Shown in pieces: positions 4,303 through 64,000 of a DNA stretch of 64,000 bases (within the stretch, counting starts at the first letter, position 1; every line of letters begins with the position of its first letter). The stretch spans positions 868,001 to 932,000 of the forward strand of contig OZ037922.1 of assembly GCA_964035575.1 (NCBI GenBank), in the 5' to 3' direction. The DNA is from Rhynchopus sp. YZ270_cl-10. Its lineage: Eukaryota; Euglenozoa; Diplonemea; Diplonemida; Diplonemidae. The notes below the pieces were generated by a model. It was given only the letters and a program-made list of their open reading frames with translations, did not search any database and had not been told where the DNA came from. The position numbers were made by a program, and so were the translations under genes.

Positions 4303-4553
4303 CTCTCCCATACTGCGAAACGGGCAGAGGAACCCCAACCGGACCCTACATCACACAGTATTCGCGTCTCTGTGTTTGCAATGATCCCCGTTCATCTGGC
4401 TGAGTGGAAGCGGGGAGTAGCACTTATCAGATGTAAACCACGAAATGGATTTGTAGGACTGCATGGTTGGGGTGTCCACCCCTCCGGTACAGCCGGTCAT
4501 TGAACTAATGGTACACTGTTTCACGAGAGGGCTTTTGTATTTCAACTCTACTT
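4303..4553 (+). repeat. Repeat family A, long copy, upstream of ankyrin gene 1
   Basis: This 250-base stretch is nearly the same as 25051-25296. Both carry an extra left half beginning CTCTCCCATACTGCG, followed by the common core that starts GATGTAAACC and ends GTATTTCAACTC. It lies about 190 bases before the ankyrin gene start and is followed by a T/C-rich run, as are the copies near other gene starts. Confidence 0.85.
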
Positions 4554-4686
4554 TTATTTTTTCCTTCACCAGGGAATCATCTGCACATCGCCACCTTACA
4601 GAACGAGAATGGCATTCTTGTAATACACAATCTACCAGCCAAACTAGCCCCTTTCCCTTTCCCCCTCTTTTCTTTTTCATTTTTTT

Positions 4687-4746
4687 AGGTTTTCTCCTTC
4701 TCCACAACCCTTTTGGTTTTCATCTTAGCAAATTAGCAAAAAAAAA
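4687..4746 (+). promoter_or_regulatory. Probable splice acceptor and leader of ankyrin gene 1
   Basis: A long T/C-rich run is followed by several TAG acceptors (4688, 4728, 4736), the last 10 bases before the ATG at 4747. It could serve trans-splicing or a 5'UTR intron. Confidence 0.45.
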
Positions 4747-6807: not shown

Positions 6808-6837
6808 GTTGAAAAAAGAGTAAAAAAAAAGTAGATC

Positions 6838-6872
6838 TCATCCGCCAACTGATCTTGATAACAAAAATGTTA
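6838..6872 (-). repeat. Repeat family I, inverted copy
   Basis: It is the reverse complement of the family I end at about 54500-54528, sharing ATCTTGATAACAAAAAT and CGCCAACTGATC. It is the only clear minus-strand copy of any of the short dispersed families. Confidence 0.6.
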
Positions 6873-7513
6873 GTGTTTTTGTGGAGGGAGGTTCGCTACA
6901 GAGCCTTGAGGAGGAATGACTGAATGATTGAAGTCGGTATGGAGAGGAGGGTTTGCGCTGCTGAGGTGTGAGCCAGGCTGTACCAGAGAAGATGGGGGGA
7001 GACCGCATGATGTCAGCCTGAGTGGATGATGTAGGTTGCAACAGCTGGTTGGGGGGGGGGTTTTTTTTTTGAAGTTGTGGTGTGCAAAATGTGTATGTAT
7101 GTGAAGCATTGTGTGTCTTTCAACCTTGCTTTCTTTTTGACTGCGGGGTGTGTGTGCTGCATTCTTCCGAGCGGTTGTTAAAAGGGTGATGCAGTAACCG
7201 AGAGGCTTAGGGCCATTCTCACTCCTCAGGTACGCTATTTTCCTGTACGTAACATGATTTTTTTTTGTATGATTTTACATGCATTTCAAAGTAATACAAC
7301 AAAGCGTGTTACTTAGCATGTTCCCGTTTAGCATGTTACACAACAAGGAAAATAGCATATTAACCGGGTCACATGGTCATCATGTGCAAATGTTTGTTTG
7401 TTCCAGTGTTAGAAACCCGAATAATATAGCCAACGTTTAATCGCCCGATACCGACTATTTTCTCCCCCTCCCGTTAAATCACTTTGCGCCAAATTTAGAT
7501 CTCGCACACTGTT

Positions 7514-7590
7514 TTTGGCTGCGTTCAACGAAAATATTCTTTCTCCTTTCCTAGTCGAGTTATCAAAGATCAGGTGGCGACCGTAAAAGG
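7514..7590 (+). repeat. Repeat family I, forward copy
   Basis: It shares TTGGCTGCGTTCAACGAAAA at its start and a degenerate ATCAAAGATCAGGTGGCG end with 54460-54528. Confidence 0.6.
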
Positions 7591-7610
7591 TCGAGAATAT
7601 TTTTTTTTCT

Positions 7611-7673
7611 TGTGCTTTCATCCGGGGCTGGCATCGTACGTCAGTCAGAGGTGCTTGCCTCAATAACCTCACT
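7611..7673 (+). repeat. Repeat family B copy 1
   Basis: Degenerate copy of the family core GGCTGGCATCGTAC followed by GTCAG(T), then CTCAATAAC. A second copy lies 220 bases downstream. Confidence 0.7.
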
Positions 7674-7894
7674 TTGTTTTTGTTTGGATGCACCATTGGT
7701 TTCACAACGTCTCTCCGCATTGTCTCTCACGGAGTTTTCTTATCACCATGTCTCCCCCAACACACCCATCAAGATATCCCGCCCCTCACGGCCCGATACA
7801 TATGACCCCTCCTCCTCCTCCTCCTCCTCCTCCCCTTCATCGAACACTAGCTCTGTATCATTTCCTTCCATCTACTGTTGTAGGCCGCAGGGTA

Positions 7895-7964
7895 CTTTGT
7901 GCTTTCATCCGGCTGGCATCGTACAGTAGGTTAGTCGGAGGTGTCCCTGCATCAATAACTACAG
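7895..7964 (+). repeat. Repeat family B copy 2, in the leader of ankyrin gene 2
   Basis: TGTGCTTTCATCCGGCTGGC opens the copy and CTGCATCAATAACTACAG closes it. It is followed directly by a C/T-rich tract and the acceptor AG of the next gene. The preceding ACTGTTGTAGGC is shared with copy 3 at 12790. Confidence 0.8.
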
Positions 7965-8018
7965 TTTCCTTCCCCTCCCCCTTCTCTCCACTGCTATCAT
8001 ATACAGAAGAAACACCGT
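7965..8018 (+). promoter_or_regulatory. Pyrimidine tract and acceptor of ankyrin gene 2
   Basis: A C/T-rich stretch ends in ATACAG at 8006, 12 bases before the ATG. It fits a splice or trans-splice acceptor. Confidence 0.55.
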
Positions 8019-10227: not shown

Positions 10228-10336
10228 CAGATGTAAACCACGAAATGGATTGTAGGACTGCAATGGGGTGTACAGCCAGTCATATACCAAGGGTACACTG
10301 TTCACGAGAAGGGCTTTTTGTATTTCACTTTCAACT
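10228..10336 (+). repeat. Repeat family A copy 2
   Basis: It runs from GATGTAAACCACGAAATGG to GTATTTCACTTTCAAC and is shorter in the middle than copy 1. It lies 160 bases after the ankyrin gene 2 stop and is followed by a T/C-rich stretch. Confidence 0.8.
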
Positions 10337-10864: not shown

Positions 10865-10965
10865 AGATGTAAACCACGAAATGGATTGTAGGACTGCATG
10901 GTTTGGGTGTCCACCCCTACCATACCAAAGGTACACTGTTCACGAGAGGGCTTTTATATTTCAAT
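10865..10965 (+). repeat. Repeat family A copy 3, upstream of the sterol reductase
   Basis: The core is intact from AGATGTAAACCACG to ATATTTCAA. It differs from other copies in having a minisatellite, not a T-run, directly behind it. Confidence 0.8.
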
Positions 10966-10974
10966 GGTGCTTTC

Positions 10975-11095
10975 GGAAGTCGGTCAACGACCTGTCAAAC
11001 GACCTGTCAATATCAGGGGGTGTGTCTATAAAGTCCCTGTATCAGTGACCTGTCAACGACCTGTCAACGACCTGTCAACGACCTGTCAATATATC
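10975..11095 (+). repeat. 11-bp minisatellite
   Basis: Units of CGACCTGTCAA occur in two blocks, about three at 10979-11012 and four or five at 11046-11092. It is just downstream of a family A copy and upstream of the sterol reductase leader. Confidence 0.8.
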
Positions 11096-11280: not shown

Positions 11281-12552
11281 ATGACTGCCTCTGTTGCAAA
11301 GCAGCAGAAGAAGTTTGAGTATGAATTCGGCGGCCCCTTTGGCGCTGTGAGCACCATGGTCAACCTCCCGCTGGTCATCCTCTTCCTCTACTTTGCCTGC
11401 GGGAAGGAGTACCTGGTCGACGGCTTCAACGTCGCAAAGCTGTACCACAACCCCCCTACGATCCCTCCATTAGCAGAATTCTTCGATGCCACCGTTCTTG
11501 CCTGCACGATACTGTGGATTCTCTTCCTCGCTGCCCTCTTTTACATTCTTCCAGGTGAAACCGTGTTCGGCTCTAACATCCAAGGTACCTCCCAAAGGTT
11601 GAAATACAAACTGAACGGACACAGTACCTTTTGGGTTTCTATTGCCTGCGCGCTGTGCCTTGATTTGACCTATATCTATGACCACTATCTGCAGTTTGCT
11701 GTGAGCGCTGTGATTGTATCGTTGATGCTGACAGTGTATCTCTCCGTAACGTCGTTTATTGGGAAGAAAACGCTGGCAGAGGGGATCAGTGGGAACTTTG
11801 TGTACGACATCTACATGGGGAGGGAGTTGAACCCGCGGATTGGCAGCTTTGACTTGAAGGTGTTCTGCGAGCTGCGCCCTGGGTTGATTGGATGGGTTGT
11901 GATTAATCTGGGGATGATGGCGAAGCAGCGTGAGAACCTTGGCTACAACACGGTCTCTATGTACACTGTCGCAGCAGGCCAGGCACTGTACGTCTGGGAC
12001 TCCCTCTACCACGAACAAAGCATCCTCACGACAATGGACATCACAACAGACGGATTCGGTTATATGCTGGCCTTTGGCGACCTTGCGTGGGTGCCCTTCA
12101 CGTACACCCTTCAGACCCGCTTCTTGGTGGACCATGAAGGCGCCTCCGATCTCCTCTCATTGGCCGCTTTGGTGTTGACCTTCGTTGGCTTTTCGATCTT
12201 CAGACTGGCAAACTCTGAGAAGGATCGGTTCAGAAGGGCTCCAGGGTCGCCCGAAGTAGCGCACCTCAAGACTATGGACACAGGGATCAAAGGAAAGAAG
12301 CTGTTGATCTCCGGGTGGTGGGGCACTGCACGCAAAATCAACTACACCGGCGACTGGATTCTTGGGCTCTCCTGGTCTATGGTGACCGGGAGTGCAACGG
12401 TCTTGACGTACTTCTACCCGATCTACTTCGCGATTCTTCTCATCCACCGTGCAGGGCGCGACGACCATATGTGCAGGAAGAAGTACGGTGACAAGGTCTG
12501 GGAGGAGTACAAGGCGCACGTCCCATACTGCTTCATCCCTTACGTTCTGTAG
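11281..12552 (+). CDS. ERG24: Delta14-sterol reductase (ERG24/LBR family), 423 aa
   Basis: Membrane enzyme of the endoplasmic reticulum that uses NADPH to reduce the C14 double bond left after 14-demethylation in sterol synthesis. The family marks are clear: GRELNPRIGSFDLK (about residues 180-193), GYMLAFGDLAWVPFTYTLQ (about 260-278), LLISGWWGTARKINYTGDW (about 341-359) and the C-terminal RDDHMCRKKYG and PYCFIPYVL. About eight to ten hydrophobic segments are spread over the length, and 423 residues is normal for the family. MLAFGDL..WVPF fits delta14 reductases better than 7-dehydrocholesterol reductase, which has a different residue pattern there. The gene is intronless and follows a strong pyrimidine tract. 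It implies that the organism makes its own sterols. Confidence 0.93.
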   Translation: MTASVAKQQKKFEYEFGGPFGAVSTMVNLPLVILFLYFACGKEYLVDGFNVAKLYHNPPTIPPLAEFFDATVLACTILWILFLAALFYILPGETVFGSNIQGTSQRLKYKLNGHSTFWVSIACALCLDLTYIYDHYLQFAVSAVIVSLMLTVYLSVTSFIGKKTLAEGISGNFVYDIYMGRELNPRIGSFDLKVFCELRPGLIGWVVINLGMMAKQRENLGYNTVSMYTVAAGQALYVWDSLYHEQSILTTMDITTDGFGYMLAFGDLAWVPFTYTLQTRFLVDHEGASDLLSLAALVLTFVGFSIFRLANSEKDRFRRAPGSPEVAHLKTMDTGIKGKKLLISGWWGTARKINYTGDWILGLSWSMVTGSATVLTYFYPIYFAILLIHRAGRDDHMCRKKYGDKVWEEYKAHVPYCFIPYVL

Positions 12553-12810: not shown

Positions 12811-12876
12811 TGTGCTTTCATCCGGATGGCTGGCATCGTACAGTGGGTCAGTCGGAGGTGCCTGCATCAACTACAG
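12811..12876 (+). repeat. Repeat family B copy 3
   Basis: It runs from TGTGCTTTCATCCGGATGGC to CTGCATCAACTACAG. A hairpin GCCTACA...TGTAGGC sits just before it (12782-12803). Confidence 0.8.
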
Positions 12877-12967: not shown

Positions 12968-13020
12968 AGGTGACTAAGTACGTGATGTTTAGAGTCATCT
13001 TATCAACTTCTTCTTTGTGC
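12968..13020 (+). repeat. Repeat family C copy, diverged
   Basis: It begins GGTGACTAAGTACG and continues AGAGTCATCTTATCAACTTC. Directly before it is CTTTTTGCAG, so the repeat begins at an acceptor-like AG. Confidence 0.65.
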
Positions 13021-14053: not shown

Positions 14054-14426
14054 TGCCCCGTTCCTTTTGAATTCCTCATCTTGGAGGTCATTTTCTGCGT
14101 TCCCTCTTCCCATCCACACCATCAACAGAAAGCAAACCAACACACCACCAATCCACTCTACACAAAAAAGGGCGATCAAACAACGTTCTTGCCCTCCCCC
14201 CCTTTTCCCTCATCAATTCTTTAAACCCCCGGAGGGGGGGAGAATCTACAGACGTGGGTTTAAATACAGCATACAACAGTTCAGTATCATTTGATAATTT
14301 CAATTTAACACAGTTTTAATACGTTTTAAACACCCTATATACTACACGGTGAACCAACACTGGGGGGTACCTTTGTTTCCTCCTCCTCCTTCTCCTTCTT
14401 CTTCTCTTCCACCTACCCTTATTAGA

Positions 14427-14481
14427 GCTGACTAAGCAAGAGAGGCTTAGGGTCATATTATAAACCTTTCTTTTCTTTGGT
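14427..14481 (+). repeat. Repeat family C copy in the leader of the acidic-protein gene
   Basis: GCTGACTAAGCAAGAGAGGCT, TTAGGGTCAT and ATAAACCTTTCTTTTC match the copy inside the cold-shock/DHH intron. A T-run and the acceptor AG at 14502 follow directly, so it has the same position relative to an acceptor as that intron copy. Confidence 0.85.
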
Positions 14482-15833: not shown

Positions 15834-15935
15834 GATGTAGGACTGCATGGTTGGGGTGTCCACCCCCCGGTACAGCCGGTCATTTGTACCAAAGGTACAC
15901 TGTTCACGAGAGGGTTTTTGTATTTCAACTCTACC
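15834..15935 (+). repeat. Repeat family A copy 4, 5'-shortened
   Basis: It lacks the first 20 bases of the family (begins GATGTAGGACTGCATGG) but keeps the rest, to GTATTTCAACTCTACC. Confidence 0.8.
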
Positions 15936-16354: not shown

Positions 16355-16404
16355 AGGTGATTCAGCACAGAGCGGCTTAGGGTCATCTTATAACCCTTTT
16401 TTTC
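16355..16404 (+). repeat. Repeat family C copy
   Basis: CAGCACAGAGCGGCTTAGGG then TCATCTTATAACC, followed by a T-run. No gene start follows nearby. Confidence 0.7.
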
Positions 16405-16926: not shown

Positions 16927-16980
16927 AATCAGACTAAGCACGAGGCTTAGGATCGTTCTGGTTAACTTTTCTTTCTTTGT
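16927..16980 (+). repeat. Repeat family C copy
   Basis: AATCAGACTAAGCACGAGGC then TTAGGATCGTT and AACTTTTCTTTCTTTG. Confidence 0.75.
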
Positions 16981-17430: not shown

Positions 17431-17594
17431 TGTCACCTCATGAAATGAAGGAGGTTGAAACACACTTTGCGGTTCTAGGTGACGAACCGCGCTGCAGAGC
17501 CACTCCTCACCAAACAGGTAGAGGTGTGTGCGTTTCACCACAACCTCTCCCATGGGTTTTATCGTGTGGTGAGTGTTACGTTTCTATTTCCTAT
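17431..17594 (+). repeat. Repeat family D copy 1, in the leader of SPOUT1
   Basis: GAAACACACTTTGCGGTTCT, GACGAACCGCGCTGCAGA and CCTCTCCCATGGGTTTTATC match 28731-28918, and the right half matches 63640-63738 inside an intron. It includes the small hairpin GCGGTTC...GAACCGC. It ends 20 bases before the acceptor AG of the next gene. Confidence 0.85.
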
Positions 17595-18768: not shown

Positions 18769-18893
18769 CAGATGCAAACTATAAAATGGATTTGTAGGAC
18801 TGCATGGTTGGGGGTGTCCACCCTCAATTGTACAACGGGTCATATACCATGATACACATTTCACGAGAGGGCTTTTGTATTTCAAGTCAACTA
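18769..18893 (+). repeat. Repeat family A copy 5, upstream of the kinase
   Basis: CAGATGCAAACTATAAAATG through GTATTTCAAGTCAAC, followed by a run of about 16 T. It lies 310 bases before the kinase ATG, as copies 3 and 6 do before their genes. Confidence 0.8.
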
Positions 18894-25050: not shown

Positions 25051-25296
25051 CTCTCCCATACTGCGAAACGGGCAGAGGACCCAAAACCGGACCCTACATC
25101 ACACAGGATTCGCGTCCCTGTGTTTGCAATGATCCCCGTTCATCTGGCTGAGTGGAAGCGGGGAGTAGCACATATCAGATGTAAACCACGAAATGGATTT
25201 GTAGGACTGCATGGTTGGGGGTCCACCCCCCGGTACAGCCGGTCATCTACCAAAGGTACACTGTTCACAAGAGGGCTTTTGTATTTCAACTCTACT
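25051..25296 (+). repeat. Repeat family A, long copy, upstream of the potassium channel
   Basis: Nearly the same as 4303-4553 over its whole length, the best-matching pair of any dispersed family in the window. It is followed by a T-run and lies about 300 bases before the channel start. Confidence 0.9.
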
Positions 25297-25524
25297 TTCC
25301 TTTTTTTTTTTTTTTTGCACTCTCTCACACCTGCCCTTACCCCCCTATCCAGGTCTCCCTTTAAACACGTTCTGACCACACCAAATGATTCCTTTATAAC
25401 CCGGCTTGGTACAACGACCCCTTCTGAGGGGGTGGGGGAGGGAAAGACGAGGGGGGGTAATTCTTTTTCTCTAATTTCTGCGAAAAAATTCGTGGCGACA
25501 ATCCTGTTCACACAAGCCTTTTGT

Positions 25525-25583
25525 TTGTGCTTTCCGGGGCTGGCATCGTACAGTGGGTTGGTCGGTGCTTGCTTCAATAACTC
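25525..25583 (+). repeat. Repeat family B copy 4, directly before the potassium channel
   Basis: GGGGCTGGCATCGTACAGTG through CTTCAATAACTC. It ends 13 bases before the first ATG of the channel gene. Confidence 0.8.
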
Positions 25584-28730: not shown

Positions 28731-28918
28731 TGTCACCTCAGTCACCTCAAGGAGGAAAATAGAAACAAAATCATTTTGAAACACACTTTGCGGTTCTGAC
28801 GAACCGCGCTGCAGAAGCCACGCCTCAACCAAAACAGGTCGAGGTGTGCGTTTCATAACCTCTTCTCCCATGGGTTGTATCTTATTTTGTTTTATGAGTG
28901 TTATGTTTCTCTTTTGTG
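28731..28918 (+). repeat. Repeat family D copy 2, after the potassium channel
   Basis: It is the longest copy: it opens GTCACCTCA..., has GAAACACACTTTGCGGTTCT and CCGCGCTGCAGAAGCCACGC, and closes with TGAGTGTTATGTTTCTC. Confidence 0.85.
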
Positions 28919-29278: not shown

Positions 29279-29317
29279 TGGTACACTGTCATGAGAGGGC
29301 TTTGTATTTCAAGACAA
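29279..29317 (+). repeat. Repeat family A copy 7, right end only
   Basis: GGTACACTGTCATGAGAGGG and TTTGTATTTCAAGACAACC remain, followed by a T-run. Confidence 0.65.
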
Positions 29318-29351
29318 CCCCCCCTTTTTTTTTTCTTTTGAAAAACTTCGA

Positions 29352-30846: not shown

Positions 30847-31814
30847 ATGTTACAACATTCTTTTGCTCTTTCGACCAATTTACTCCCTGCAATCCCTTCT
30901 CTTTCTCCCTCTGCACCCTTTACCCCCACCTCACAGCTCGCCTCCAAATGCGTGTCGCGACAGCGTACACAACGCCGTCTTCGTCTGCTCTGCCACAACG
31001 TGCAGAAGAAGCACAACATCGGCTCGCTCCTCCGTGTTGCAGTTGCGATGGGTGTGGAGGAGGTCATTCTTGTCAACAAAAGCGGTAACAAGAAGGAGTT
31101 TGGCACGTTTGGCGCGTTTGGGACGGAGAAGCACACGAAATTCGCTCACTGCCATACCATTGGCGAGGCGAAGGCGTATCTCGCTGAGGATGGGTTCGAC
31201 CTTGTGGGTGTCGAGATCATGAACAACGCGAAGCCTGTTGTGGATTACTTCGCGCTGCCCGGGATGTGGGGTCTGGTGCGCCAGCCGTGGAGACATCCGA
31301 ATGTGTGCATCGTCATGGGGAATGAGGGGCAGGGTCTGCATGAGACAGTCAAGGTGCTCTGCGACTGGTTTGTGTACATCCCGCAGTACTCGCAGGGCAC
31401 TGCGTCCATGAACGTCGTGACGGCTGCAGCTATCATCATGCACCAATTCGCCATGTCTCGCTGTTCGACAGAGGCATCACGGCAAGGCGAGAAGTTCGAT
31501 GTCGCAGCAGTCCCCACACCTCTCCAAGACTATGAAAATACATCTCCGGAAGAGTTCCAGGCGCTGAGGGATCAAAGGGTATGGGTCGTTTGAAAATTTT
31601 TTTTAAACCAATGTCTGCCTTCGCCGATGAACGGTGAGGTGTTTGCACTTTCAACGTCTTTTTGGCCTCAAAGAGGTTTCCTCTTGGCCAGGTAGTCAGT
31701 GGAGAGCGTATTGCAGTAATAAAAACAATTTTGCTTGCACCACAGGCTTCGCACGACCTTCCTGATGAAGAAGACGCACCGGACGCTGGGTGGATGGATG
31801 AGGAAGACGAATAA
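30847..31814 (+). CDS. SpoU/TrmH-family RNA 2'-O-methyltransferase, two exons
   Basis: Methylates a ribose 2'-OH in tRNA or rRNA with S-adenosylmethionine. The three SpoU motifs are present: NIGSLLRVAVAMGVEEVILV (about 57-76), IVMGNEGQGLHE (about 155-166) and SMNVVTAAAIIMHQF (about 188-202). Exon 1 ends at 31578 (codon AGG), the intron is 31579-31745, and exon 2 adds ASHDLPDEEDAPDAGWMDEEDE and a TAA at 31812-31814. Both joins are phase 0. Without splicing the frame would end four codons into the intron. The start is uncertain. The ATG at 30847 gives an Arg-rich N-terminus that could be a mitochondrial signal, but C/T-rich sequence ending TCACAG at 30936 suggests instead an acceptor with an upstream exon still unfound. 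Confidence 0.85.
31579..31745 (+). other. Intron of the SpoU gene, made of repeat modules E and F
   Basis: Donor GTATGG, acceptor CACCACAG, 167 bases, phase 0. About 31612-31660 is family E (GCCGATGAACGGTGAGGT, TTTGCACTTTCAAC) and 31663-31734 is family F (GCCTCAAAGAGG, GAGCGTATTGCAGTAATAAA). Together they make up almost the whole intron. Confidence 0.85.
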
Positions 31815-36635: not shown

Positions 36636-36672
36636 TAGTGGAGCACACTCTAGGGTGTCTACAAGTTTTCAA
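36636..36672 (+). repeat. Repeat family J copy 2
   Basis: TAGTGGAGCACACTCTAGGG then TACAAGTTTTCAAAAAAA, matching 50009-50063. Confidence 0.65.
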
Positions 36673-36925
36673 AAAAAGCAAACAAAAAGAACAGTGCAAG
36701 AGACCTGGGTTTCCTTGTGTTCCTTTTTTAAGATCTGTGTGTGCAAGCGAGGAACGTTTATCTTAAGTTTTTTTTTAAAACCCACAGAGCGTCCCAGAGA
36801 GCCTTTGCATTGTCGACATCACTTTTTTTTTGGGTGAGTCACTGACGTCTTTTTTTTATCTGGATGGAACACTGCTTTATGTACCTTGCATACAACTTCC
36901 CTCGTGGTAACCAAAAAAAAAACAC

Positions 36926-37104: not shown

Positions 37105-37182
37105 GTTCGATAACCCGCGGATAACCAGTAGCTGCGTCCGTCCGGTGTACGGTGTGGTGTTTTGCACTTTCAACAAAAGTTT
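37105..37182 (+). repeat. Repeat family E copy with GGGTTCGATAACCC hairpin
   Basis: GGGGTTCGATAACCCGCGGA, then CTGCGTCCGTCC and TTTTGCACTTTCAAC. The stem GGGTT/AACCC resembles a tRNA T-arm or B-box (GGTTCGANNCC). Confidence 0.65.
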
Positions 37183-38101: not shown

Positions 38102-38260
38102 ACTCCGGGGTTCGATAACCCGCGGAGTGTCAGTGCCTGCGTCCCAGAGGCGTTTGCACTATCAACTTCACTTTTTTGGTGTACCCTTTTCATTTTTTTT
38201 TGAACTGAATGCCTGCGTCCGCCGATGAACGGTTGAGGTATTTGTACTTTCAACTTCTCT
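38102..38260 (+). repeat. Two repeat family E copies in tandem
   Basis: The first (38102-38168) has ACTCCGGGGTTCGATAACCC within a longer hairpin closed by CACTCCG/CGGAGTG. The second (38205-38260) has GCCTGCGTCCGCCGATGAAC and GTACTTTCAACTTC. Confidence 0.7.
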
Positions 38261-39368
38261 TTTTTTGAATTGACAGTATAATTCTGAATTTTTGTTTTTG
38301 TTCTCTTTTTTTTCTTTGATTGGCACCTGATTTTTGCCTGAAAAATTGATGGAGTTTAGTGGAGTTTTTTGGGTGGTATTAAAACCACTTTTAACGCTAC
38401 CAAAACTTTATCAAATTTTAGGGGAAAATCAGATGGTAATTGCTAGAATGTGTGATTGAAAAATTAACAAATATTGCGTGGCATTATTACCAATTACAAA
38501 GATGCGTGAAAAAGCAGGTGTGCAAGGGGTAGTTCCTCGGAACTGAACCATTGCACGAAGGAGGCCTGGCTCCATAGGTCCCCTACCCTGATTCAAAGCT
38601 GTTTCATTCTTTTTTTCTTTTTTCTTTTTCTTTTTTTTTGAAAAAAAGGTGTGATATTTCATTTTCAATTTTTTTATATTTTTATATTCGACGTCGTTGC
38701 TATTGGCGTATTATTTTATTCTTTTTTTTGCAATTTCAGCTTCTCTTTTTATGTGTTATCCCTCCCCCGCATAGGAACCACCCACTTCAAAGTAAGGGAA
38801 ACAACAAATGCTTTAAAAAAAACAAAGTAGGGAGGGGGGGCAAAAGTAACACGAAAACAAACAAAAAAGAACCCTTTTTTTTGAAAATCTTCAAAAAATT
38901 TAAGGGGGTTTTGAAGGGAGAACCCTGGATGCGTCGCTGCTGTACCCAACCCCAACACTGCCCCAACCTCTCCCCTCCCTTTCCCCATACAGAGTAAGCC
39001 GGAAACTACAATAAAGTTCGCACCTCGTTTTGGTTAAGGATATAAAAGCTAAACACACACAAACACAAAATAGCAGACAAAGAGTACAAAACATAACAAA
39101 AAAAAAAAAAAACATCTACAAACACTCCTATCTACCCAGACACACACACAGACCCCCCTTTTTTTTCTTCTCTTAGCAGAATCTTAGCAAAGTAACCCCT
39201 ATTTTTTTTGTAAAATCCAACCTCCCCCTCCTCCTCCCCCCCAGCAATGCGAACCGTCCTCGTATTCCTTTCTTCATCGTTGTAAAAAAACAAAACGGAG
39301 GGAGGGGGGACATCCTCCTCTCTCCTCCGTATCCTTCAAATACTTTAATTTTTTTTTTCTTTTTGTAA

Positions 39369-41335: not shown

Positions 41336-41438
41336 CAGATGTAAACCAAAAAAAAAATGGGTGTAAGGACTGTATGGTTGGGTGTCCACCCACTACCCAA
41401 AGGTACACGTGTTCACGAGCGGGCTGTTGTATTACAAT
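41336..41438 (+). repeat. Repeat family A copy 8, diverged
   Basis: CAGATGTAAACC, GACTGTATGGTTGGGTGTCC and TTCACGAGCGGGCTGTTGTA, then a T-run. Confidence 0.7.
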
Positions 41439-41480
41439 TTTTTTTTTTTTTGTACGAACCTATGAAGTAACATTGCATTT

Positions 41481-41650
41481 TGACCCCGCGGAGAAGCAGT
41501 GCCCTGCGTCTGCCGATGAATCGGTGAGGCATTTTGCACTTTCAACTAGGCCATGTGTGCACAGTCGCGCACATTATCATCTTTCAAGTTTATTTGTTTC
41601 CGTCGACTACGCGCGAGGCTTGGTGCCATCTTTACCAACTTTTTCTAGTT
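41481..41650 (+). repeat. Families E and C side by side
   Basis: E lies at 41481-41548 (ACCCCGCGGAGAAGCAGTG, CTGCCGATGAATCGGTGAGG) and a diverged C copy at 41601-41650 (CGACTACGCGCGAGGCTTGG). No gene follows. Confidence 0.6.
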
Positions 41651-42328: not shown

Positions 42329-42428
42329 AGGCCTCAAAGAGGGTTCCTCTTGGTCAGGTGGTCAGTGGGGAGCGTATTGGAGTAATAAAAATATCACTAC
42401 AGAATATTTATTACACACTTTGCGCACA
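42329..42428 (+). repeat. Repeat family F copy 2
   Basis: GCCTCAAAGAGGGTTCCTCT, GGGAGCGTATTGGAGTAATA and TTACACACTTTGCGCACAAA. It is longer at the right than the copy inside the SpoU intron. Confidence 0.8.
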
Positions 42429-42538: not shown

Positions 42539-42596
42539 TTGTGCCTTCATCGGGGCTGGCATCGTTGGGTCGGAGGTGCCTGCATCAATAACTTCA
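42539..42596 (+). repeat. Repeat family B copy 5
   Basis: GGGGCTGGCATCG, GGGTCGGAGGTGCCTGCATC and AATAACTTCA, then a T-run. It follows family F within 110 bases. Confidence 0.75.
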
Positions 42597-42728
42597 TTTT
42601 TTTTTTTTTTTTGCGAATCCCCAGGGTCCTCAGCCTGCACCCCCCTGTGGGAATTTTAGGGGTGCAAAAAATTTTCTGTACAAAACCCTTCAGAAAAGTC
42701 CATTCCGAGCTTTCTCCCCACACAAGCG

Positions 42729-45393: not shown

Positions 45394-45517
45394 CAAATAT
45401 AAACCTCGAAATGGATTGTAGGACTGCATGGCAGAAAGGTCCACCCCCTGGTGTACTGACCATTGTACCAAAGGTACACTCTCAATGAGAGGGGCTTTTT
45501 TTGTATTTCAAGTCAAC
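45394..45517 (+). repeat. Repeat family A copy 9
   Basis: AAATATAAACCTCGAAATGG through GTATTTCAAGTCAACC. A family B copy follows 85 bases later, the same A-then-B order as before the potassium channel. Confidence 0.8.
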
Positions 45518-45601: not shown

Positions 45602-45673
45602 TTGTGCTTTCATCCGGATGGCTGGCATCGTACAGTGGGTCAGTCGGAGGTGTACCTGCATTAATAACCACAC
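45602..45673 (+). repeat. Repeat family B copy 6
   Basis: TTGTGCTTTCATCCGGATGG, GCATCGTACAGTGGGTCAGT and CCTGCATTAATAACCACACT. Confidence 0.85.
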
Positions 45674-45930
45674 TCTTCAAAATGTGTATGCAACGTAAAG
45701 CATAATATTATTCACCTTTCAACCTTTTTTTTTCTCTTTTTTTTTTTCCTCTGTAAGCTGAACTCTAGTGGTTCAACACTCCAGGACGGGGAATCGATAG
45801 TTTCCACGGGAGCAATCCAGTTGTGTCTTTGGGGTGTTCTCTACACTATCTAAAAAAACTTCATCTATTTTGTACAATTTTTTTTTTTTGCAAAACCCAC
45901 CTGATTTGCAAAAAACGGCAAACCCTCCCA

Positions 45931-46201: not shown

Positions 46202-46699
46202 TACTGTGTACTGTGTACTGTGTACTGTGTACTGTGTACTGTGTACTGTGTACTGTGTACTGTGTACTGTGTACTGTGTACTGTGTACTGTGTACTGTGT
46301 ACTGTGTACTGTGTACTGTGTACTGTGTACTGTGTACTGTGTACTGTGTACTGTGTACTGTGTACTGTGTACTGTGTACTGTGTACTGTGTACTGTGTAC
46401 TGTGTACTGTGTACTGTGTACTGTGTACTGTGTACTGTGTACTGTGTACTGTGTACTGTGTACTGTGTACTGTGTACTGTGTACTGTGTACTGTGTACTG
46501 TGTACTGTGTACTGTGTACTGTGTACTGTGTACTGTGTACTGTGTACTGTGTACTGTGTACTGTGTACTGTGTACTGTGTACTGTGTACTGTGTACTGTG
46601 TACTGTGTACTGTGTACTGTGTACTGTGTACTGTGTACTGTGTACTGTGTACTGTGTACTGTGTACTGTGTACTGTGTACTGTGTACTGCGTACTGTGC
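46202..46699. repeat. Heptamer satellite (TACTGTG)n, about 70 copies
   Basis: Nearly perfect TACTGTG units without interruption; only the last differ (TACTGCG). Since 7 is not a multiple of 3 and no unit junction makes a stop, all six frames stay open and repeat a heptapeptide (CVLCTVY forward, STQYTVH reverse). Short traces of the same unit occur at 44731-44752. Confidence 0.97.
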
Positions 46700-46745
46700 G
46701 GAAATTGACCAAAAACGAGAACTGTACTGTACTGTGCAGCTATGG

Positions 46746-48401: not shown

Positions 48402-48657
48402 TATACCCACAAAGCGTAGCTTAAAGGAGAAATGGTTCCTCCAATGCGGTTGTCAATCACCCCCCTACCCAGAAGGGTATTTGAGCAATCAACGAAAAAA
48501 AAACCCCCCCTTTTTTTTTGGTCTTGAGGTTTCCTCTTCACGGTCAGATCAGTGGGAGCGTATTGTGAGTAATAAAAATATCAACACAGAATATACATTA
48601 CACACTTTACGCACAAAACACACCACCCCCCCCATATCAGAGTTACTATTTTTCAAA
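48402..48657 (+). repeat. Repeat family G copy 1 interrupted by family F copy 3
   Basis: G runs 48402-48515 (AAAGCGTAGCTTAAAGGAGA, TTGAGCAATCAACGAAAA) and resumes at 48642 (ATATCAGAGTTACTATTTTT). F (48520-48625, GAGGTTTCCTCTTC, GGGAGCGTATTGTGAGTAAT) sits exactly between the two halves, so F inserted into G. Confidence 0.75.
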
Positions 48658-49882
48658 CCCCCCCCCCCCGGGGTAGGTGGGGGCAAAACCTTCAGGACGG
48701 GTGAGGCATTTTGACTTTTTTGGACTTCCGCGCAAAGTACCCACAAACCACCCCTCATACCCACCCAGAAATGGGTCAGAAACACCCTGTGACCCGAAAA
48801 TCCATGCTAAGGGCGACTCAGAATATGAAAAAATGCAAAAAAATAGTGAAAAAGTGGCCTTTTGACGGTTTTGGCCATGTTGGGTAAAATGGCCATTTTT
48901 GGACAAAAAAATCAAAAAAACAGCAAAATTTCGACGTCATGACAGCTGCTTGGGCACAAACCTACCCCAGGGAGGTCCTGTGAGTCCATTCCGACCTGTT
49001 TTGGACACTTTAGGTACTTTTTTTGGCCGTTTTTTGGTGTTTTTAGGTCAAAAAATACCCTGGACTTTACCCTGGACGTCCCTGGGCCGCGACTTGCGCC
49101 CTGCTTTCAGACCCACTCTGGGCCAAAAAATGGGTGAAAACCCCCGAAAAAGCACTCCGGGAACCCAGATAGTTCCAAATATCCACTAGAAACCCACCCA
49201 AACACCTCAAAAACATGCCAGAAAAATATTTTCAAAAACACACTTTTTTCAAAAAGTTCATCTGGGCAGGTTCCATAATGACTTATTTGAAAAAGTGTGT
49301 TTTTAAAAATATTTTTCTGGCATGTTTTTGAGGTGTTTGGGTGGGTTTCTGGTGGATATTTGGAACTATCTGGGTTCCCGGAGTGCTTTTTCGGGGGTTT
49401 TCACCCATTTTTTGGCCCAGAGTGGGTCTGAAAGCAGGGCGCAAGTCCGGTCCGGGGATAGTCCGGGGATAGTCCGGGGATGTTTTTTGACCTAAAAACA
49501 CCAAAAAACGGCCAAAAAAAGTACCTAAAGTGTCCAAAACAGGTCGGAATAGACTCACAGGACCTCCCTGGGGTAGGTTTGTGCCCAAGCAGCTGTCATG
49601 ACGTCGAAATTTTGCTGTTTTTTTGATTTTTTTGTCCAAAAATGGCCATTTTACCCAACATGGCCAAAACCGTCAAAAGGCCACTTTTTCACTATTTTTT
49701 TGCATTTTTTCATATTCTGAGTCGCCCTTAGCATGGATTTTCGGGTCACAGGGTGTTTCTGACCCATTTCTGGGTGGGTATGAGGGGTGGTTTGTGGGTA
49801 CTTTGCGCGGAAGTCCAAAAAAGTCAAAATGCCTCAAAAAAATAGGGGTTTTGCCCCCACCTACCCCCCCCCCCCCCCCCCT
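48652..49882. mobile_element. Foldback element with arms of about 590 bp
   Basis: 48670-49253 is the inverse of 49287-49865 with few differences, the main one being a stretch near 49060-49085 against 49445-49490. The spacer is only about 33 bases. Both edges carry C runs and GGTAGGTGGGGGC / GCCCCCACCTACC. Open stretches in the arms are mirror images and do not look like genes. It is a foldback (long inverted repeat) transposon or a recent inverted duplication, and could form a huge hairpin. Confidence 0.9.
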
Positions 49883-50008: not shown

Positions 50009-50063
50009 ATAGTGGAGCACACTCTAGGGTGGCTACACTAATACAACCAAGTTTTCAAAAAAA
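50009..50063 (+). repeat. Repeat family J copy 3, upstream of coiled-coil gene 1
   Basis: ATAGTGGAGCACACTCTAGG then CTACACTAATACAACCAAGT and TTTCAAAAAA. Confidence 0.65.
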
Positions 50064-54528: not shown

Positions 54529-54555
54529 GTCTAGTTTTTGTTTTTTTTTGTTTTT

Positions 54556-54690
54556 ATTCCTACAAGCGTAGCTTAAAGGAGAAATAGTTCCTCAGATACG
54601 GTCGCCAATCACCCCTCAAACAGGGTAATTGTGCAATCAACGAAAAAACCTTTTTCCCTTTTACTTACCTATCAGAGTTACTATTTTTCC
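54556..54690 (+). repeat. Repeat family G copy 2
   Basis: ATTCCTACAAGCGTAGCTTA, GGTCGCCAATCACCCCTCAA and TATCAGAGTTACTATTTTTC, uninterrupted, in contrast to copy 1. Confidence 0.8.
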
Positions 54691-54965
54691 AGCTTTTTAT
54701 TTGATGCTTGCACGCTAAGCGAAGTGCTCTAAAAGGTTCAAACGGGATGCATCGTTTTTTGAACGTCCTTTTGTATGTTTTTCTCGAAATAGAAAGCTAC
54801 TGTAGTGTGGCTGAAAGGGGGTGCTATTATTGTGCTATTTTCTGCTATTCTGGGTATCTAGGTTTTTTTGGTGTGGCTGAAGGGAGGTGCTACTTTCTGC
54901 TACTTGCGGCTACACCATACTGATTATTTTCCATAATTTAACACAAAAAATCAACTCCCCAACAG

Positions 54966-56016: not shown

Positions 56017-56771
56017 ACTACCGTAAATCAGAAATTTCACCTCTTTTAGGATTTTTCTTTCAACCTTTTTTTTTTTTACGGCCGAACATTATTCCAATCA
56101 CAGTAATTACAGTACTCCAAATCTGTCCGGATTTGGGGATTTTTTCTGTCTGGTGGAGGACCGTTGCAGTGTTTGACGTGCAAATCGCTCGTCCAAGCTG
56201 GGTATATGGGGCGAAAGACCCATCGAACCATCTAGTAGCTGGTTCACTGCTCCGAAGTTTCCCTCAGGATAGCTGGAACCAAAAAAGGAGTTACGCCAGG
56301 TAAAGCGAATGATTGGAGGAATTGGGGAAATCGCTTCCTCGACCTATTCTCAAACTTTAAATGGGCGTGAGCTCGGGGTATCTTATTTGTACCCCATCAG
56401 GATAATTGAATTGTGTACGTACCTCCATTGGGTCTGTGGTACTCTATTCTGCTCTAATTGGGAACCGATATTTCGGGTGACTTTGTGTCCTCGGGATAGT
56501 TGATCGTCGAAAACTACAAAAAAAAAATAGTTTCTTGTCATCTCAGTTTCCCCCCCCCCCATGGGGATGGGGGGGCGGTTCCAATTCCTACGGATTCATG
56601 CCTGCTCCGTCTCGGAGATATTTTGCTCTTTCCCTCTTTGTTCTTCCTCATGACTTTGTTATGTATTTTTTCGTGACTATTTTTTCCCCCGCTTCCTGAA
56701 AAAATTCTTCCGAATTTTTTTTTTCTTCAGAAAAGCGGTTAGTAAATATAACTGCACACCTACACACATAT

Positions 56772-59302: not shown

Positions 59303-59355
59303 ATCTGGCTGGCATCGTACAGTGGGTCGGAGATGTGCCTGCATCAATAACTTCA
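59303..59355 (+). repeat. Repeat family B copy 7
   Basis: CTGGCTGGCATCGTACAGTG, GGTCGGAGATGTGCCTGCAT and CAATAACTTCAC. Confidence 0.8.
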
Positions 59356-59480
59356 CTTTATCTTGGCCAAGCTTTCCCCCCCTATACCGTGCGATACCGA
59401 TTGTTTCAAGGCGACTTGAGCATAGAGAAGCAAAGGATTTCCGGGTTGTCTAAACCTTCTCTTCTTCTCCCTTCTTTTTT

Positions 59481-59624
59481 GTTTAATAACGAATGTGATC
59501 AAAGGTGACTAAACACAGAGGGGGCATAGGTTCATCTTATAAACGTTTCTTTGTGCTTTTCATCCAGATGGCTGGCATCGTACAGTGGGTCAGTCGGAGG
59601 TGTGCCTGCATTAATAATTACACT
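59481..59624 (+). repeat. Families C and B joined, copy 1
   Basis: C (59481-59550, AAAGGTGACTAAACACAGAG, TCATCTTATAAACG) runs straight into B (59551-59624, TTTTCATCCAGATGGCTGGC, GTACAGTGGGTCAGTCGGAG). The same junction occurs at 60002-60113. Confidence 0.85.
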
Positions 59625-59727
59625 TTTGTTTTCCCCTCTGAGTCTTCCTCTCTCTGCTGTGGACTTTAGTTTGATAGTTTTGTGGGGGTGTTCTAAGACT
59701 GTGCATTTCCTGTAGATGTGTGCATGG

Positions 59728-60001: not shown

Positions 60002-60113
60002 CAAGGTGGCTAAGCACGAGAAGCTTAGGGTCATCTTATAAACTTTTCTTTTCTTTGTGCTTTGGGTTTTGGGATCGTACAGTGGGTCAATCGGAAGAGT
60101 GCCTGCTACAACC
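60002..60113 (+). repeat. Families C and B joined, copy 2
   Basis: GGTGGCTAAGCACGAGAAGC, TTAGGGTCATCTTATAAAC, then GGGATCGTACAGTGGGTCAA and GTGCCTGCTACAACC. Confidence 0.8.
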
Positions 60114-60189: not shown

Positions 60190-60995
60190 GTACCTATTTT
60201 CCAGATTTTCCTTAACCTAAATAGACAAATTTACCTGTTTTTATTACCTTGTGATTTTCCCATTTTTCACATTTTCGAGGCCGGGCACCACCCAAAAGCG
60301 CTGTTTCTTGCATTTTTGGGCCAATCCCAGCCTGTGTTGGGGTCACTTTAAAAAAATGGCCAAAATTTTCATCACTTTAATTTTTGGGAAGTGCCAAGTA
60401 TCTAGTTTGCAGTAACTTTTGGCATTATGTTTTTGTGGGGATTTGTCCTCTGGCGGGGGTAGGGGTTGTATATCTACCGACGGATTGTAGAGGGTTTTGC
60501 GAGCATTCGCCTCACTGTAGCGGGTTATTTCGAAAATAATGGACAAGTTCATGGTTGATACAATTTTTGGCCATTACCACCAGTGAGTTGCTTCACAGGG
60601 TAAAATGTAACTATGATTCTGGGCCACCGCCCCCTCGAAATGCAAAAAGGTCCCAAACCCGGGCGCGCTACGTGCGCCGACCTTTTTGCAGCTTGGTCAA
60701 AGTTGTATTTTTCGGCTGCAAAATGCAGGCGAATATATTCGGACTTCTATTTTTTTGCGGAGCAAAAAAAAATAATATTGATGGCGCCGCAGGCGAAAAA
60801 AAATTAGGGTACAGTGTAAAAATGCAGCTTTTACACTACAGAGCCACTCAAAGATTGAAATTCCCCTCAGAAAAAAGCAGGTATTTTTTTCCTGCCCCCT
60901 ATTTTTCCCGTATATAAAAACAGGTAAATTTATTTTACCTTCCCCCGTTATAAAAACAGGTAAATTCTTGTTTTATTCTGAAAACCTAAATAGTA
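60190..60995. mobile_element. Possible 0.8-kb inverted-repeat element
   Basis: AAATTTACCTGTTTTTATTA near the left (60224) is inverted twice near the right (about 60915 and 60950, TATAAAAACAGGTAAATT). Outer parts CCTAAATAG pair loosely. It holds a GCGGAGC/GGCGCCGCAGGC repeat unit (60752-60845). The boundaries are uncertain. Confidence 0.4.
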
Positions 60996-62005
60996 AATAG
61001 CTTTTAGGCTCACGCGTGGTCAAAATACCCCAAAAAAATCCGCCAAATTTCAAATTACGCCAAGTTTCTGTGACTGTATTTATTATCAGATGTACACATT
61101 GTGATGTATTTTGCGTATTCCAATGGGCTCCCCATCACAATACTGCCACCATTAGAGTCTAGGTGTACGATGCAGCATTTGGCACTTTCAGCCTCTCAAC
61201 ATTTTCTTCATTTGAATAGTCGATCCAATTAAAAGCACGCCAAGGATTGTTTTAATACACAAAGAAGGAAAAAAAAAATAGTTTTTACGTAGTGGTAAAC
61301 TCCATTCCTCGGTGGGGTCAACGACTAACACAAGCTCTTTTTTCCCCTCCAATTTTTTAAAAAAAAAACTTACCCCCTTTCCAAAAGTAACACATTAACT
61401 CACAAAAAACCCTCTATTTTTTTTTGTGTGTAACAATATCTAACAAACACCCCCCCACCCACTTAACAATAAGAACAAAAAAAAGAAACCAACCTTTTTT
61501 TAAACTCATTCAATCTCTGGTGTGGCTGAAAGGGGGGTGTGATAGAGTACTATTTTGGGAGTCTGGATTTTTTTTCCCTCGCAAAGTGCGATGGGCGATG
61601 GGGTGCTATTTTGGGGTCGTCAGCCATACCAATGTCCTCTGTTTTTTTTTTATTCCTACGAAGCTTGCTTTAAAGGGGAAATAGTATTACCGGTACGGTC
61701 GCCAATCATCCCTCAAACAGGAGGATTGTGCAATCAACGAAAAAAAACCTTTTTTCCTTTTACTTACCTACCGATCCTACTATTTTGTCATAATCACCTC
61801 ACCCCTCCCACACTAGACACACACAACACACCACCACCCCTCTTTCCCCATATTCTTTCATCGCGGTTCTTCTCATTTTTTTGTTACGTTCCAAAAAAAA
61901 AAAAAAAATACCAAAAAAAACCGTAATGCGATAAGGTTGTTGGCATTTCTCTTCTCTCTTTTTTTTTTTTTTCGTTCTTTTTTTTTTTTTCTCTGATTTT
62001 TTGTG
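60996..62005. other. Intergenic stretch before the cold-shock/DHH gene
   Basis: It holds a GTGGCTGAAAGGGGGGTG repeat (61523-61625) that also occurs at 54811-54900, family G copy 3 (61651-61785), and long T and A runs. I see no gene. Unlike most genes here, no AG acceptor stands close before the next ATG. Confidence 0.45.
61651..61785 (+). repeat. Repeat family G copy 3
   Basis: ATTCCTACGAAGCTTGCTTT, GGTCGCCAATCATCCCTCAA and TTACTTACCTACCGATCC. Confidence 0.8.
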
Positions 62006-64000
62006 ATGTATGGTAATAATTCGAATGGGCGGGCATGGCAGCAGACGCAGGGTGGGATGCCTTTGTCTCCTACAGGACAGGCACAGCAACAACAGTGGAA
62101 TTACAACCAAGGGATGGACCCACGCATGCAACAGCAGGGGATGCACCAAATGCAAGGGGTGATGCAGCCGAACCAACCGGGAATGCCTTCGTCCGCGTAT
62201 GTCCCGCAGGCGCAGACCGGGATGGGGGTGGGGTATGATTCTGGGTACCAAAACAACCGTCAGATGGCTCAAAGCGGATACTCCGGACAGCAAATGTACA
62301 CCTCCGGTCAGGTCCCCTATACCGCAGGGCAACGGTACCACCAACAGCAGCAGCAGCAACAGCAACAACAACAACAACACCGTGCCATGATGGGGGGCAT
62401 CCCCGGGGTGCAACCCACCCAGCCACTCCCATACTCCCAGCAGCCACAGCAACCAATGGAGGCACCGTCCTCAAATCTCCACCAACATGCCTCAGCAAAG
62501 GAGTGGTACCCCCCTTCACAGAAGCAGTCTGGTTTGGATGCGGGGGCAAAGTCATTTTTCCCGAAGGGTGGAGGAACCGCAGCGACGGCCAGTGTAAAGT
62601 ACGCTGCACCCACCTCGTCATCCCCGAAGAGTCGATACGGCTTCCAGGCCACACCTCAACAGGAGTTGCTCCTTGAAAAACCGTTGAAGGGCGTGATCAA
62701 GCAGTACCATGGTTCCCCGCAGGAGATGGGTTTTATTGAATGCAAAGAGGCGAAGGAGGCCTTCGGGAGGGATATCACCTTTATGTTAGAGCGCTGTGAG
62801 AACTTCACCCCAGAGCAGAAAGCGCCGGTGGTGTTTTATCTGTCGAAACAGAAGTTTGCGTTTGCACGCAAAGTCATGCTTGACGAAAACGCAGAGGAAA
62901 GCAAAGAACGGTTTTTCGGACATATCACCAACTGGGACGCGGCAGCGGGTAAGGGGGAGATTCAGAGTGCATCTGCCCAGAGCTGGCACTCTGGGAAAAA
63001 AATCACGATCACCCGCAAAGGGAAGGAGGTGCTGAACAACGGGGTTCGGGTGACCTTCCGGTTAGGTGATCACGACGACGCGGACAATGTCAATGCTCTC
63101 GATGTCATTGCCCTCCCCGTTTCGTTGGAGCAGCTCGACACCTCGCTTTGCCCAGAGGATTTCCCTACCCCGGACATCACTCCTCCGACGCCTGGACAGA
63201 ACCCTTGGGAGATCGACATTGTGTTTTTCCATGCATGTTGCTGGGATGGGTTGTGTTCGGCATATGCGTTCTACAACGCCGCAGGGCCGAACCGAGATAA
63301 CATTCAATTCCGTCCAGTTCCAACGAGCATGCCTTCTGACGCAGAAGCCCCAGACGTAGAAGGTAAAAACATTGCAGTGGTGGACGTCATTTTCCAGGGT
63401 GAGTTTATGATGCAAATCGCAGAGGACAGCAAGTCGTGTATTGTGATTGACCACCACGTGACCTCGAAGGCTCAGCTGCAGGGTCTGCATACAAGGGATG
63501 TGCGGTTTGAGATGGACTACCCGGCGTGTGTGCTGGCATGGGAGTTCTGCAGAAAGGCGATAGAGTTAAACGCTCCGGATTATATCAAGGTATGGGGAAA
63601 AAAAGGGGATAAAAAAAATGCTCTCCGAGGGGTTCTATAACGGAAGAACCAGAGGCACTACTTAAACAGGTAGAGGTGTGTGTTTCACCACAACCTCTCC
63701 CATGGGTTTTATCGTGTGAGTGTGAAGTTTCTGTTTTTGTTGTTTGCTTTTATGAAAAGAGTTCATTGTATTATGTGTTTTTGCATTTGTGTCTTTTGTC
63801 TGTAGAAGCCAGCGCAGCTGATGCTGTGCGATAACGAATATGATAAGGTGACTAAGCACGAGAGGCTTAGGATCATCTTATAAACTTTTCTCTTTGTCTC
63901 TTCAGGAGGAAGTTACTCACGCGTCGATCCCTATGTTCCTCTCCCTAGTGGGTGAGGTGGATTTGGGGAGGTTCGGAATGGATCACCCGATCTCAAGAAG
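62006..64000 (+). CDS. Cold-shock-domain/DHH phosphoesterase fusion, 5' part, two exons visible
   Basis: Residues 1-220 are Gln/Gly/Met/Pro-rich with a run of about 12 glutamines. Residues about 225-295 fit a cold-shock (OB-fold) domain (GVIKQYHGSPQEMGFIEC, VVFYLSKQKFAFARKV) and about 298-373 a second, weaker one (FGHITNWD, GVRVTF). From about 400 begins a DHH-family phosphoesterase: FFHACCWDGLCSAYAFY, IAVVDVIFQ and the metal-binding D482-H483-H484 in IVIDHHVTS. This family includes RecJ, NrnA and exopolyphosphatases, and the RNA-binding domains suggest it acts on RNA. Exon 1 ends AAG at 63589, the intron is 63590-63905, and exon 2 continues EEVTHASIPMFLSLVGEVDLG in phase 0 to the window end. 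An in-frame GTG precedes, but ATG at 62006 is the start. DHHA1 must lie beyond 64000. Confidence 0.9.
63590..63905 (+). other. Intron of the DHH gene, made of repeat modules D and C
   Basis: Donor GTATGG, acceptor TCTCTTCAG, 316 bases, phase 0. Family D occupies 63640-63738 (ACAGGTAGAGGTGTGTGTTT, CCTCTCCCATGGGTTTTATC) and family C 63845-63900 (GGTGACTAAGCACGAGAGGC, TCATCTTATAAACTTTTC), the latter running directly into the acceptor. Confidence 0.9.

What the first reader, a model, noticed from the sequence alone, without database searches (positions are those of the whole stretch)
4303..64000. Sense-only short repeats that form introns and leaders (introner-like modules)
At least eight short repeat families (A to J) have about 40 copies, and all but one lie in the same orientation as the genes. 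Two of the proven-frame introns are made almost wholly of them (SpoU: E+F; DHH: D+C), and others sit right before acceptors of gene leaders (B at 7895, C at 14427, D at 17431, B at 25525). Transposons insert in both directions, so strict orientation plus acceptor position suggests selection for splicing or a mechanism that adds them in the sense direction.
Basis: partly seen in the sequence, partly recalled or inferred. Interest (0 to 1): 0.85.

Follow-up and report, generated by a model that had tools for sequence, protein, structure and literature searches.

The report
Sense-only retroposon tails in gene arrays
At least one of these short repeat families is the broken tail end of a jumping gene (a LINE) in a diplonemid-like protist, and it and its fellow families lie only in the direction in which the chromosome is read, which other jumping genes in the same genome do not do.

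Summary
The repeats are real and sense-oriented well beyond the window, but they are not introners. The genome (152 Mb, probably a diplonemid) has long arrays of genes reading one way, so co-orientation inside this one-strand window proves nothing. Against 231 gene markers elsewhere, listed copies of families A, B, C and E agree with the nearest gene 114:0; an unrelated repeat is 48:44. Family C is the 3' end of a recently active non-LTR retrotransposon with endonuclease and reverse transcriptase. Most C copies are 5'-truncated, many to a 46-nt hairpin tail. The LINE itself is sense 20:0; another LINE group is 4:11 (not significant). T-rich target sites are nearly symmetric. A C copy entered an existing intron (L036), and a splice-acceptor test was negative. 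Best reading: sense-locked retroposition with the lock set at insertion, first strand made on the transcription template strand. Selection and replication-fork coupling remain open. A, B and E are attributed to such machinery by analogy: their parents were not found, and 5' truncation was not shown for B and E.

The parts
63804..63900 (+). C, long form: 5'-truncated LINE 3' end inside the DHH-gene intron (start approximate); core C at 63845-63900
60003..60052 (+). C copy (LINE 3' tail)
59502..59555 (+). C copy
16931..16973 (+). C copy, variant 5' part
16355..16401 (+). C copy
14426..14473 (+). C copy about 44 nt upstream of the ATG at 14517
12968..13013 (+). C copy
4308..4552 (+). K+A: long form of element A
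25056..25298 (+). K+A: long form of element A
10229..10328 (+). A copy
10865..10975 (+). A copy
15834..15930 (+). A copy, 5'-truncated
18770..18885 (+). A copy
29280..29318 (+). A copy, strongly 5'-truncated
41338..41439 (+). A copy
45397..45511 (+). A copy
7617..7674 (+). B copy
7904..7965 (+). B copy upstream of gene 8019
12817..12874 (+). B copy
25538..25583 (+). B copy just upstream of the channel gene 25596
42551..42598 (+). B copy
45609..45676 (+). B copy
59306..59357 (+). B copy
59559..59625 (+). B copy
60070..60113 (+). B copy
31610..31662 (+). E copy inside the SpoU intron
37131..37177 (+). E copy (weak, E 0.18; kept in the profile search)
38134..38178 (+). E copy (E2 form)
38208..38269 (+). 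E copy
41503..41551 (+). E copy
17450..17589 (+). D copy; orientation seen in the window only
28776..28912 (+). D copy
63631..63735 (+). D copy inside the DHH-gene intron
31664..31728 (+). F copy inside the SpoU intron
42330..42409 (+). F copy
48526..48594 (+). F copy
48411..48522 (+). I copy
54556..54694 (+). I copy
61652..61788 (+). I copy
31579..31745 (+). SpoU intron, GT-AG, in frame on both sides
63590..63905 (+). Intron of the DHH-like gene (PF01368 E 0.0019, below the cut-off), GT-AG, in frame on both sides

Best explanation
The modules are retroposons, not introns. Family C is the 3' terminus of a recently active, endonuclease-bearing LINE; its copies are 5'-truncated insertions of that LINE, often cut down to a 46-nt hairpin-plus-U-rich tail. 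A, B and E behave as short elements moved in a similar way. They lie in T-rich DNA in introns and between genes, with their sense strand on the sense strand of the polycistronic array. SHOWN: LINE origin of C; constant 3' end and 5' truncation of C and A; sense lock of A, B, C, E and of the LINE at the places listed; no lock for an unrelated repeat. INFERRED: the lock is set at insertion, because reverse transcription is primed only from a nicked A-rich site on the DNA strand that Pol II uses as template; and A, B and E use this LINE or a sister. UNKNOWN: why this LINE would not use the other strand, and whether any copy is used in splicing.
For: C sits at nt 2357-2404 of the 3' halves of three LINE copies, 10 nt after the stop codon, and their homology ends at nt 2408-2409. 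ORF of 1462 aa (stop to stop) with Exo_endo_phos and RVT_1; two copies are 99.8% identical over 5474 nt, the third 96% over 2408 nt. Long C copies carry the LINE's last codons (L011). 87 of 88 C copies reach the 3' end and 4 of 88 the 5' end of a 144-nt query; for A 16 and 1 of 23. 44 of 71 exact-core C copies start within 2 nt of AAGG, the base of a hairpin with z -3.3. Target duplications: test on 54 C copies, 0 of 500 permutations reach the observed score. Orientation: A+B+C+E 114:0 against the nearest gene within 150 kb; LINE 20:0 within 200 kb of any marker (p 1.9e-6); control repeat 48:44; short A-tailed repeat H 78:11; LINE group RT137 4:11, RT117 6:5. Target-like T-rich sites predict 43-45% antisense.
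Against: No parent was found for A, B or E. 5' truncation is not shown for B (11 of 44 reach the 5' end, 16 of 44 the 3' end) or E2 (10 and 3 of 18); their queries overshoot the 3' end. Target duplications are weak: the 54-copy test used boundaries set after seeing the copies and included some long forms; a looser test on 84 C copies gave 43 of 300, A 3 of 300, B 14 of 300, E2 199 of 300 with 7 pairs. One minus-strand A match (E 8.8e-9) lies in a palindromic stretch of L107 over a plus match. Small RT groups do not split cleanly: RT84(8-202) is 6:0, RT124, A-rich at the 3' end of the copy fetched, is 3:0 with 3 undetermined, and one of those undetermined (L119) lies opposite to the modules beside it. 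Human L1 is biased against sense (PMC5717806, abstract). Transcription and replication direction may coincide.
Confidence: 0.55

Rival explanations
1. The lock follows replication, not transcription: the LINE primes from the 3' ends of nascent lagging-strand DNA, and forks run the same way as the gene arrays. Sense orientation is then a by-product.
For: Arrays mostly diverge from one internal point per contig, as expected if an origin lies there; the strand that must supply the primer is the one that would be the nascent lagging strand under co-directional replication (inference).
Against: The LINE has its own endonuclease domain. A single fork direction over more than 1 Mb would be unusual in a eukaryote (general knowledge). 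Two other LINE groups in the arrays are not sense-locked.
Confidence: 0.2
2. Insertion is random and selection removes antisense copies, for example because antisense copies in transcribed arrays make double-stranded RNA with the many sense copies and trigger RNA interference, or create bad processing signals.
For: D. papillatum has RNAi genes (PMC10161547, section 9). SIDER retroposons of Leishmania are sense-biased about 4:1 (PMC2689281, passages).
Against: H has more exact-core copies than C (2135 against 1790) and keeps 11 of 89 antisense; the control repeat (1238 copies) is 48:44. LINE copies, two of the three checked being 99.9% alike over 2408 nt, are already 20:0. C tails are only about 46 nt.
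Confidence: 0.2
3. Introners: the modules bring splice sites and create introns or acceptors.
For: They occur in introns and upstream of genes; their 3' ends look like branch point plus pyrimidine tract. In L010 the A match covers the donor.
Against: In SpoU, DHH and L036 the donor lies outside the module; L036 shows insertion into an existing intron; YAG test not significant; C is a LINE 3' end.
Confidence: 0.05

Closest known systems
Non-LTR retrotransposons (LINEs) with APE-type endonuclease, their 5'-truncated copies and SINEs
   Same: Endonuclease plus RT in one ORF, constant 3' end and 5' truncation of C and A, T-rich flanks.
   Different: Complete sense lock at the places tested; U-rich instead of poly(A) 3' end; a favoured 46-nt hairpin tail.
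SIDER retroposons of Leishmania (PMC2689281 and PMC11520807, passages read)
   Same: Short, degenerate retroposons in polycistronic arrays of a euglenozoan, sense-biased.
   Different: SIDERs are about 4:1 sense overall and mostly antisense in spacers; here 114:0. The 79-nt SIDER signature was not compared.
Introners (PMC9860276, passages read)
   Same: Short repeated sequences within introns.
   Different: Here a C copy lies inside an existing intron, most copies lie between genes, and element ends are not shown to be splice sites.
Human L1 orientation bias (PMC5717806, abstract and outline read)
   Same: Orientation bias tied to transcription and set at insertion.
   Different: Opposite sign (against sense) and partial.

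Membership tests
Introner | Element creates a new intron, its ends at or next to the splice sites | tested here: not met
   L036: 47-nt intron without and 263-nt tandem copy with the element; donors outside modules in SpoU and DHH; L010 unclear, the A match covers the donor
Introner | Spliced out of mature mRNA | not testable with these tools
   No RNA reads; three introns with modules are frame- or domain-consistent
LINE and its truncated copies (family C) | RT and endonuclease encoded by the parent | tested here: met
   PF03372 E 7.9e-14, PF00078 E 5.1e-24
LINE and its truncated copies (family C) | Copies end at the parent's 3' end and are truncated at 5' | tested here: met
LINE and its truncated copies (family C) | Target site duplications | tested here: inconclusive
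   54 copies 0/500; 84 copies, looser, 43/300
SINE (families A, B, E) | Full element with a fixed 5' end, shared 3' end, truncated copies | tested here: inconclusive
   A: about 297 nt, common 5' end in 5 of 8 loci, truncated copies; not shown for B and E2
SINE (families A, B, E) | Pol III promoter or descent from tRNA, 7SL or 5S | tested here: inconclusive
   No Rfam match at the module positions up to E 1; promoter boxes not searched
SIDER | 79-nt ingi-clade signature | not tested
   signature named in PMC2689281; sequence not compared

The most novel reading that the evidence does not exclude
A LINE and its passengers whose target-primed reverse transcription is confined to the strand that Pol II is reading, so that insertion itself is locked to transcription direction along whole chromosome arms: strand-restricted, transcription-coupled retrotransposition.
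Probability: 0.4. Interest if true: 0.87.

Novelty: new variant of a known kind. Interest (0 to 1): 0.72.

Why it matters
Transposons normally enter DNA in either direction and biases are partial. A near-absolute lock, seen for one LINE and several short families and absent for other repeats in the same arrays, would let one ask directly what couples integration to transcription or replication. It also makes the element a strand marker: its orientation maps transcription domains in a barely annotated genome without RNA data.

Tried and rejected
Rejected: (1) a 42-nt micro-exon in the DHH-like gene followed by C as a complete 58-nt intron. The frame fits, but the same 42 nt precede other C copies and belong to the LINE. 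(2) Modules as acceptors: YAG test not significant. (3) T-rich target bias as cause of the lock: predicts 43-45% antisense. (4) Viral spread: C core absent from viral contigs. (5) A, B, E or D as 3' ends of six other RT groups fetched (L110/L116, L111, L112, L118, L119, L120): no A, B, D or E match directly after an ORF end. L117 carries two H copies directly after an ORF; not pursued. (6) Known RNA family: no Rfam match at module positions. Early nearest-ORF test: 68 same, 11 opposite. The 11 are G or H matches (6), C and I (L039), and B, C and E (L044), against ORFs with coding scores of 42.8 or less; two stronger L044 ORFs (70, 67) agree with the modules; one L039 ORF resembles a hAT transposase (E 0.0046, below the cut-off).

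Not obtained: a whole-genome protein search for sister LINEs.
Full report
1. What the window is. The window is G000:C90:868001-932000 of a 152.4-Mb, 126-contig genome. It is probably a diplonemid: by score the closest named relative of the sterol reductase at 11281-12549 is from Diplonema papillatum (53%; two unnamed EukProt proteins at 62% and an unnamed ENA protein at 60% are nearer), and the named relatives of the LINE found below are mostly from D. papillatum. All genes recognised in the window read on +. D. papillatum has long unidirectional gene arrays and spliced-leader trans-splicing (PMC10161547, passages and section 9); diplonemid introns are surveyed in PMC12621601 (outline and parts 1-3 of 8 read). 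In a one-strand window 'same orientation as the genes' is not evidence of anything, so the test had to be made elsewhere.

2. The repeats exist. Single-sequence searches recovered 46 copies in the window. Profile searches over the window and 46 loci gave 27 A, 22 B, 75 C and 26 E matches (some loci overlap, so a few are counted twice). Eight 10-kb stretches from a random draw held 25 A/B/C/E copies, which would mean roughly 50,000 in the genome. This is very rough: three of the eight had none, and two of the first ten draws were left out when I asked for fewer letters.

3. Genome-wide orientation. The C 20-mer occurs 907 times on + and 883 on -, the B 33-mer 83 and 81, the E2 24-mer 224 and 271. 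Along contigs the strands form long runs: C1 has 19 minus and then 9 plus. Genes do the same: in the map most contigs with both strands have a minus left arm and a plus right arm. With 231 gene markers (131 kinase, 19 ABC, 10 SpoU and 71 ankyrin matches), the nearest gene within 150 kb agrees with the module in 114 of 114 cases: C 26, B 29, E 41, A 18, out of 100, 100, 100 and 40 listed places, the rest having no gene so near. Genes agree with each other 116:3. Controls in the same arrays: repeat T 13:15 against genes within 150 kb and 48:44 against all markers within 100 kb; the A-tailed short repeat H 32:6 and 78:11. Two cautions. Calling domains by extrapolation from genes alone gave 13 antisense calls (11 C, 2 E), all in one block, C2:1.15-1.44 Mb, with no gene marker inside. 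And one minus-strand A match (E 8.8e-9) lies in L107 at 5971-5920, over a plus match, in a palindromic stretch.

4. What C is. Reverse-transcriptase matches (150 scored of 739 candidates) fall into groups by score and ORF length. One, RT91 (27 matches, ORF up to 1462 aa), is itself sense: 20:0 within 200 kb of a marker, 7 without one so near. Three of its copies (L107-L109) are homologous up to nt 2408-2409 and then diverge; the ORF's stop codon ends at nt 2346 and module C lies at 2357-2404. C is therefore the LINE's 3' end. The ORF has an Exo_endo_phos and an RVT_1 domain, and two copies are 99.8% identical over 5474 nt, so it was active recently. Long C copies elsewhere carry the end of this ORF (L011). 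Other groups: RT137 4:11 and RT117 6:5; small ones RT84(8-202) 6:0, RT85 4:1, RT87 4:1, RT84(2034) 4:1, RT124 3:0, RT81 3:2, RT126 0:3. So other LINEs may share the lean, but numbers are small.

5. How the copies were made. Of 88 C matches, 87 reach the 3' end of a 144-nt query and 4 its 5' end; for A the figures are 16 and 1 of 23. For B (16 and 11 of 44) and E2 (3 and 10 of 18) no such pattern shows; those queries overshoot the 3' end. The ladder of 5' ends of C and A is visible in the alignments. 44 of 71 exact-core C copies start within 2 nt of AAGG, 15 are longer and 12 shorter. AAGG is the base of a hairpin of 35 of the tail's 46 nt (-13.3 kcal/mol, z -3.3), so a hairpin-protected RNA fragment may be the usual template (inference). 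The E sequence that I folded also begins at a hairpin base (z -2.5); B and A do not fold better than shuffles. Element A has a long form of about 297 nt with a common 5' end in 5 of 8 loci. Target duplications: on 54 C copies the score is 193.8 against 139.6 +- 16.2 expected, 0 of 500 permutations; boundaries were set after seeing the copies and some long forms were included. By eye, L039 shows C within an A-like 3' end with TTTGTATT on both sides. A looser test on 84 C copies was not significant (43 of 300); A gave 3 of 300, B 14 of 300, E2 199 of 300 with 7 pairs.

6. Why sense only? Flanks of C are T-rich, but target-like T-rich sites are only slightly commoner on the sense strand of non-coding DNA (14,900 against 11,317), so targets predict 43-45% antisense. 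Selection is possible but must spare H (11 of 89 antisense) and the control repeat (44 of 92), and must already have acted on young LINE copies. I therefore favour a lock set at insertion. A U-rich RNA 3' end can prime from an A-rich nick on the antisense strand, which is the strand Pol II reads; if only that strand is usable, every copy is sense. RT137, A-rich at the 3' end of the one copy fetched (L112), leans the other way without significance (4:11, p 0.12), as human L1 does (PMC5717806, abstract). Against a simple tail rule, RT124 is A-rich too (L119) and 3:0 sense, although the L119 copy itself, undetermined there, lies opposite to the modules beside it. Replication-fork coupling would give the same pattern if forks run with transcription.

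7. Splicing. The SpoU intron (167 nt) and the intron of the DHH-like gene (316 nt) are in frame on both sides; joining the L010 exons gives an RRM domain across the junction. Modules cover 118 of 167 and 161 of 316 nt of the first two. In SpoU, DHH and L036 the donor lies outside the module; in L010 the A match starts in the exon and covers the donor, which I cannot interpret safely. In L036 tandem gene copies offer a comparison: 47 nt without C, 263 nt with it. The acceptor test on 152 copies gave 55% YAG against 47% for controls (p 0.09 and 0.10). The modules may sometimes serve splicing, but nothing here shows it.

8. Against what is known. SIDERs in Leishmania are the nearest published case that I saw: sense about four times commoner overall, antisense about three times commoner in spacers (PMC2689281, passages), 82% sense in 3'UTRs (PMC11520807, passages). 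Introners differ in creating introns (PMC9860276, passages). The listings of five searches showed no report of a fully sense-locked LINE; only the papers named here were opened, so this is a narrow search.

Counts were mended (46 copies; 10 nt after the stop codon), and the L010 donor, the L107 minus match, the B and E2 truncation figures and the small RT groups were added.

Noticed in passing
56105-56417: Fragment of the 28S rRNA gene on +; scattered 28S pieces are reported for D. papillatum (PMC10161547, passage).
   Followed up: no
48702-49836: Inverted repeat with two 556-nt arms, 96% complementary, 23 nt apart.
   Followed up: no
46202-46712: Tandem array of a short GTGTACT-type unit, about 500 nt.
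   Followed up: no
G000, contigs C1-C101: Most contigs with markers of both strands have a minus left arm and a plus right arm, as if transcription diverged from one internal point; C2 shows four strand runs.
   Followed up: partly
36638-36675, 50012-50063; genome-wide: Short A-tailed repeat H is sense-biased but not locked (78:11); two copies directly follow an ORF in L117.
   Followed up: partly
RT137 group, e.g. L112: LINE group with an A-rich 3' region in the copy fetched; leans antisense to the arrays (4:11, not significant).
   Followed up: partly
L040: Tandem array of minus-strand ORFs with a period of about 2.4 kb.
   Followed up: no
6880-6830: The one clear antisense match in the window (family J, E 7e-6) lies just after the stop of an ankyrin gene.
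   Followed up: no
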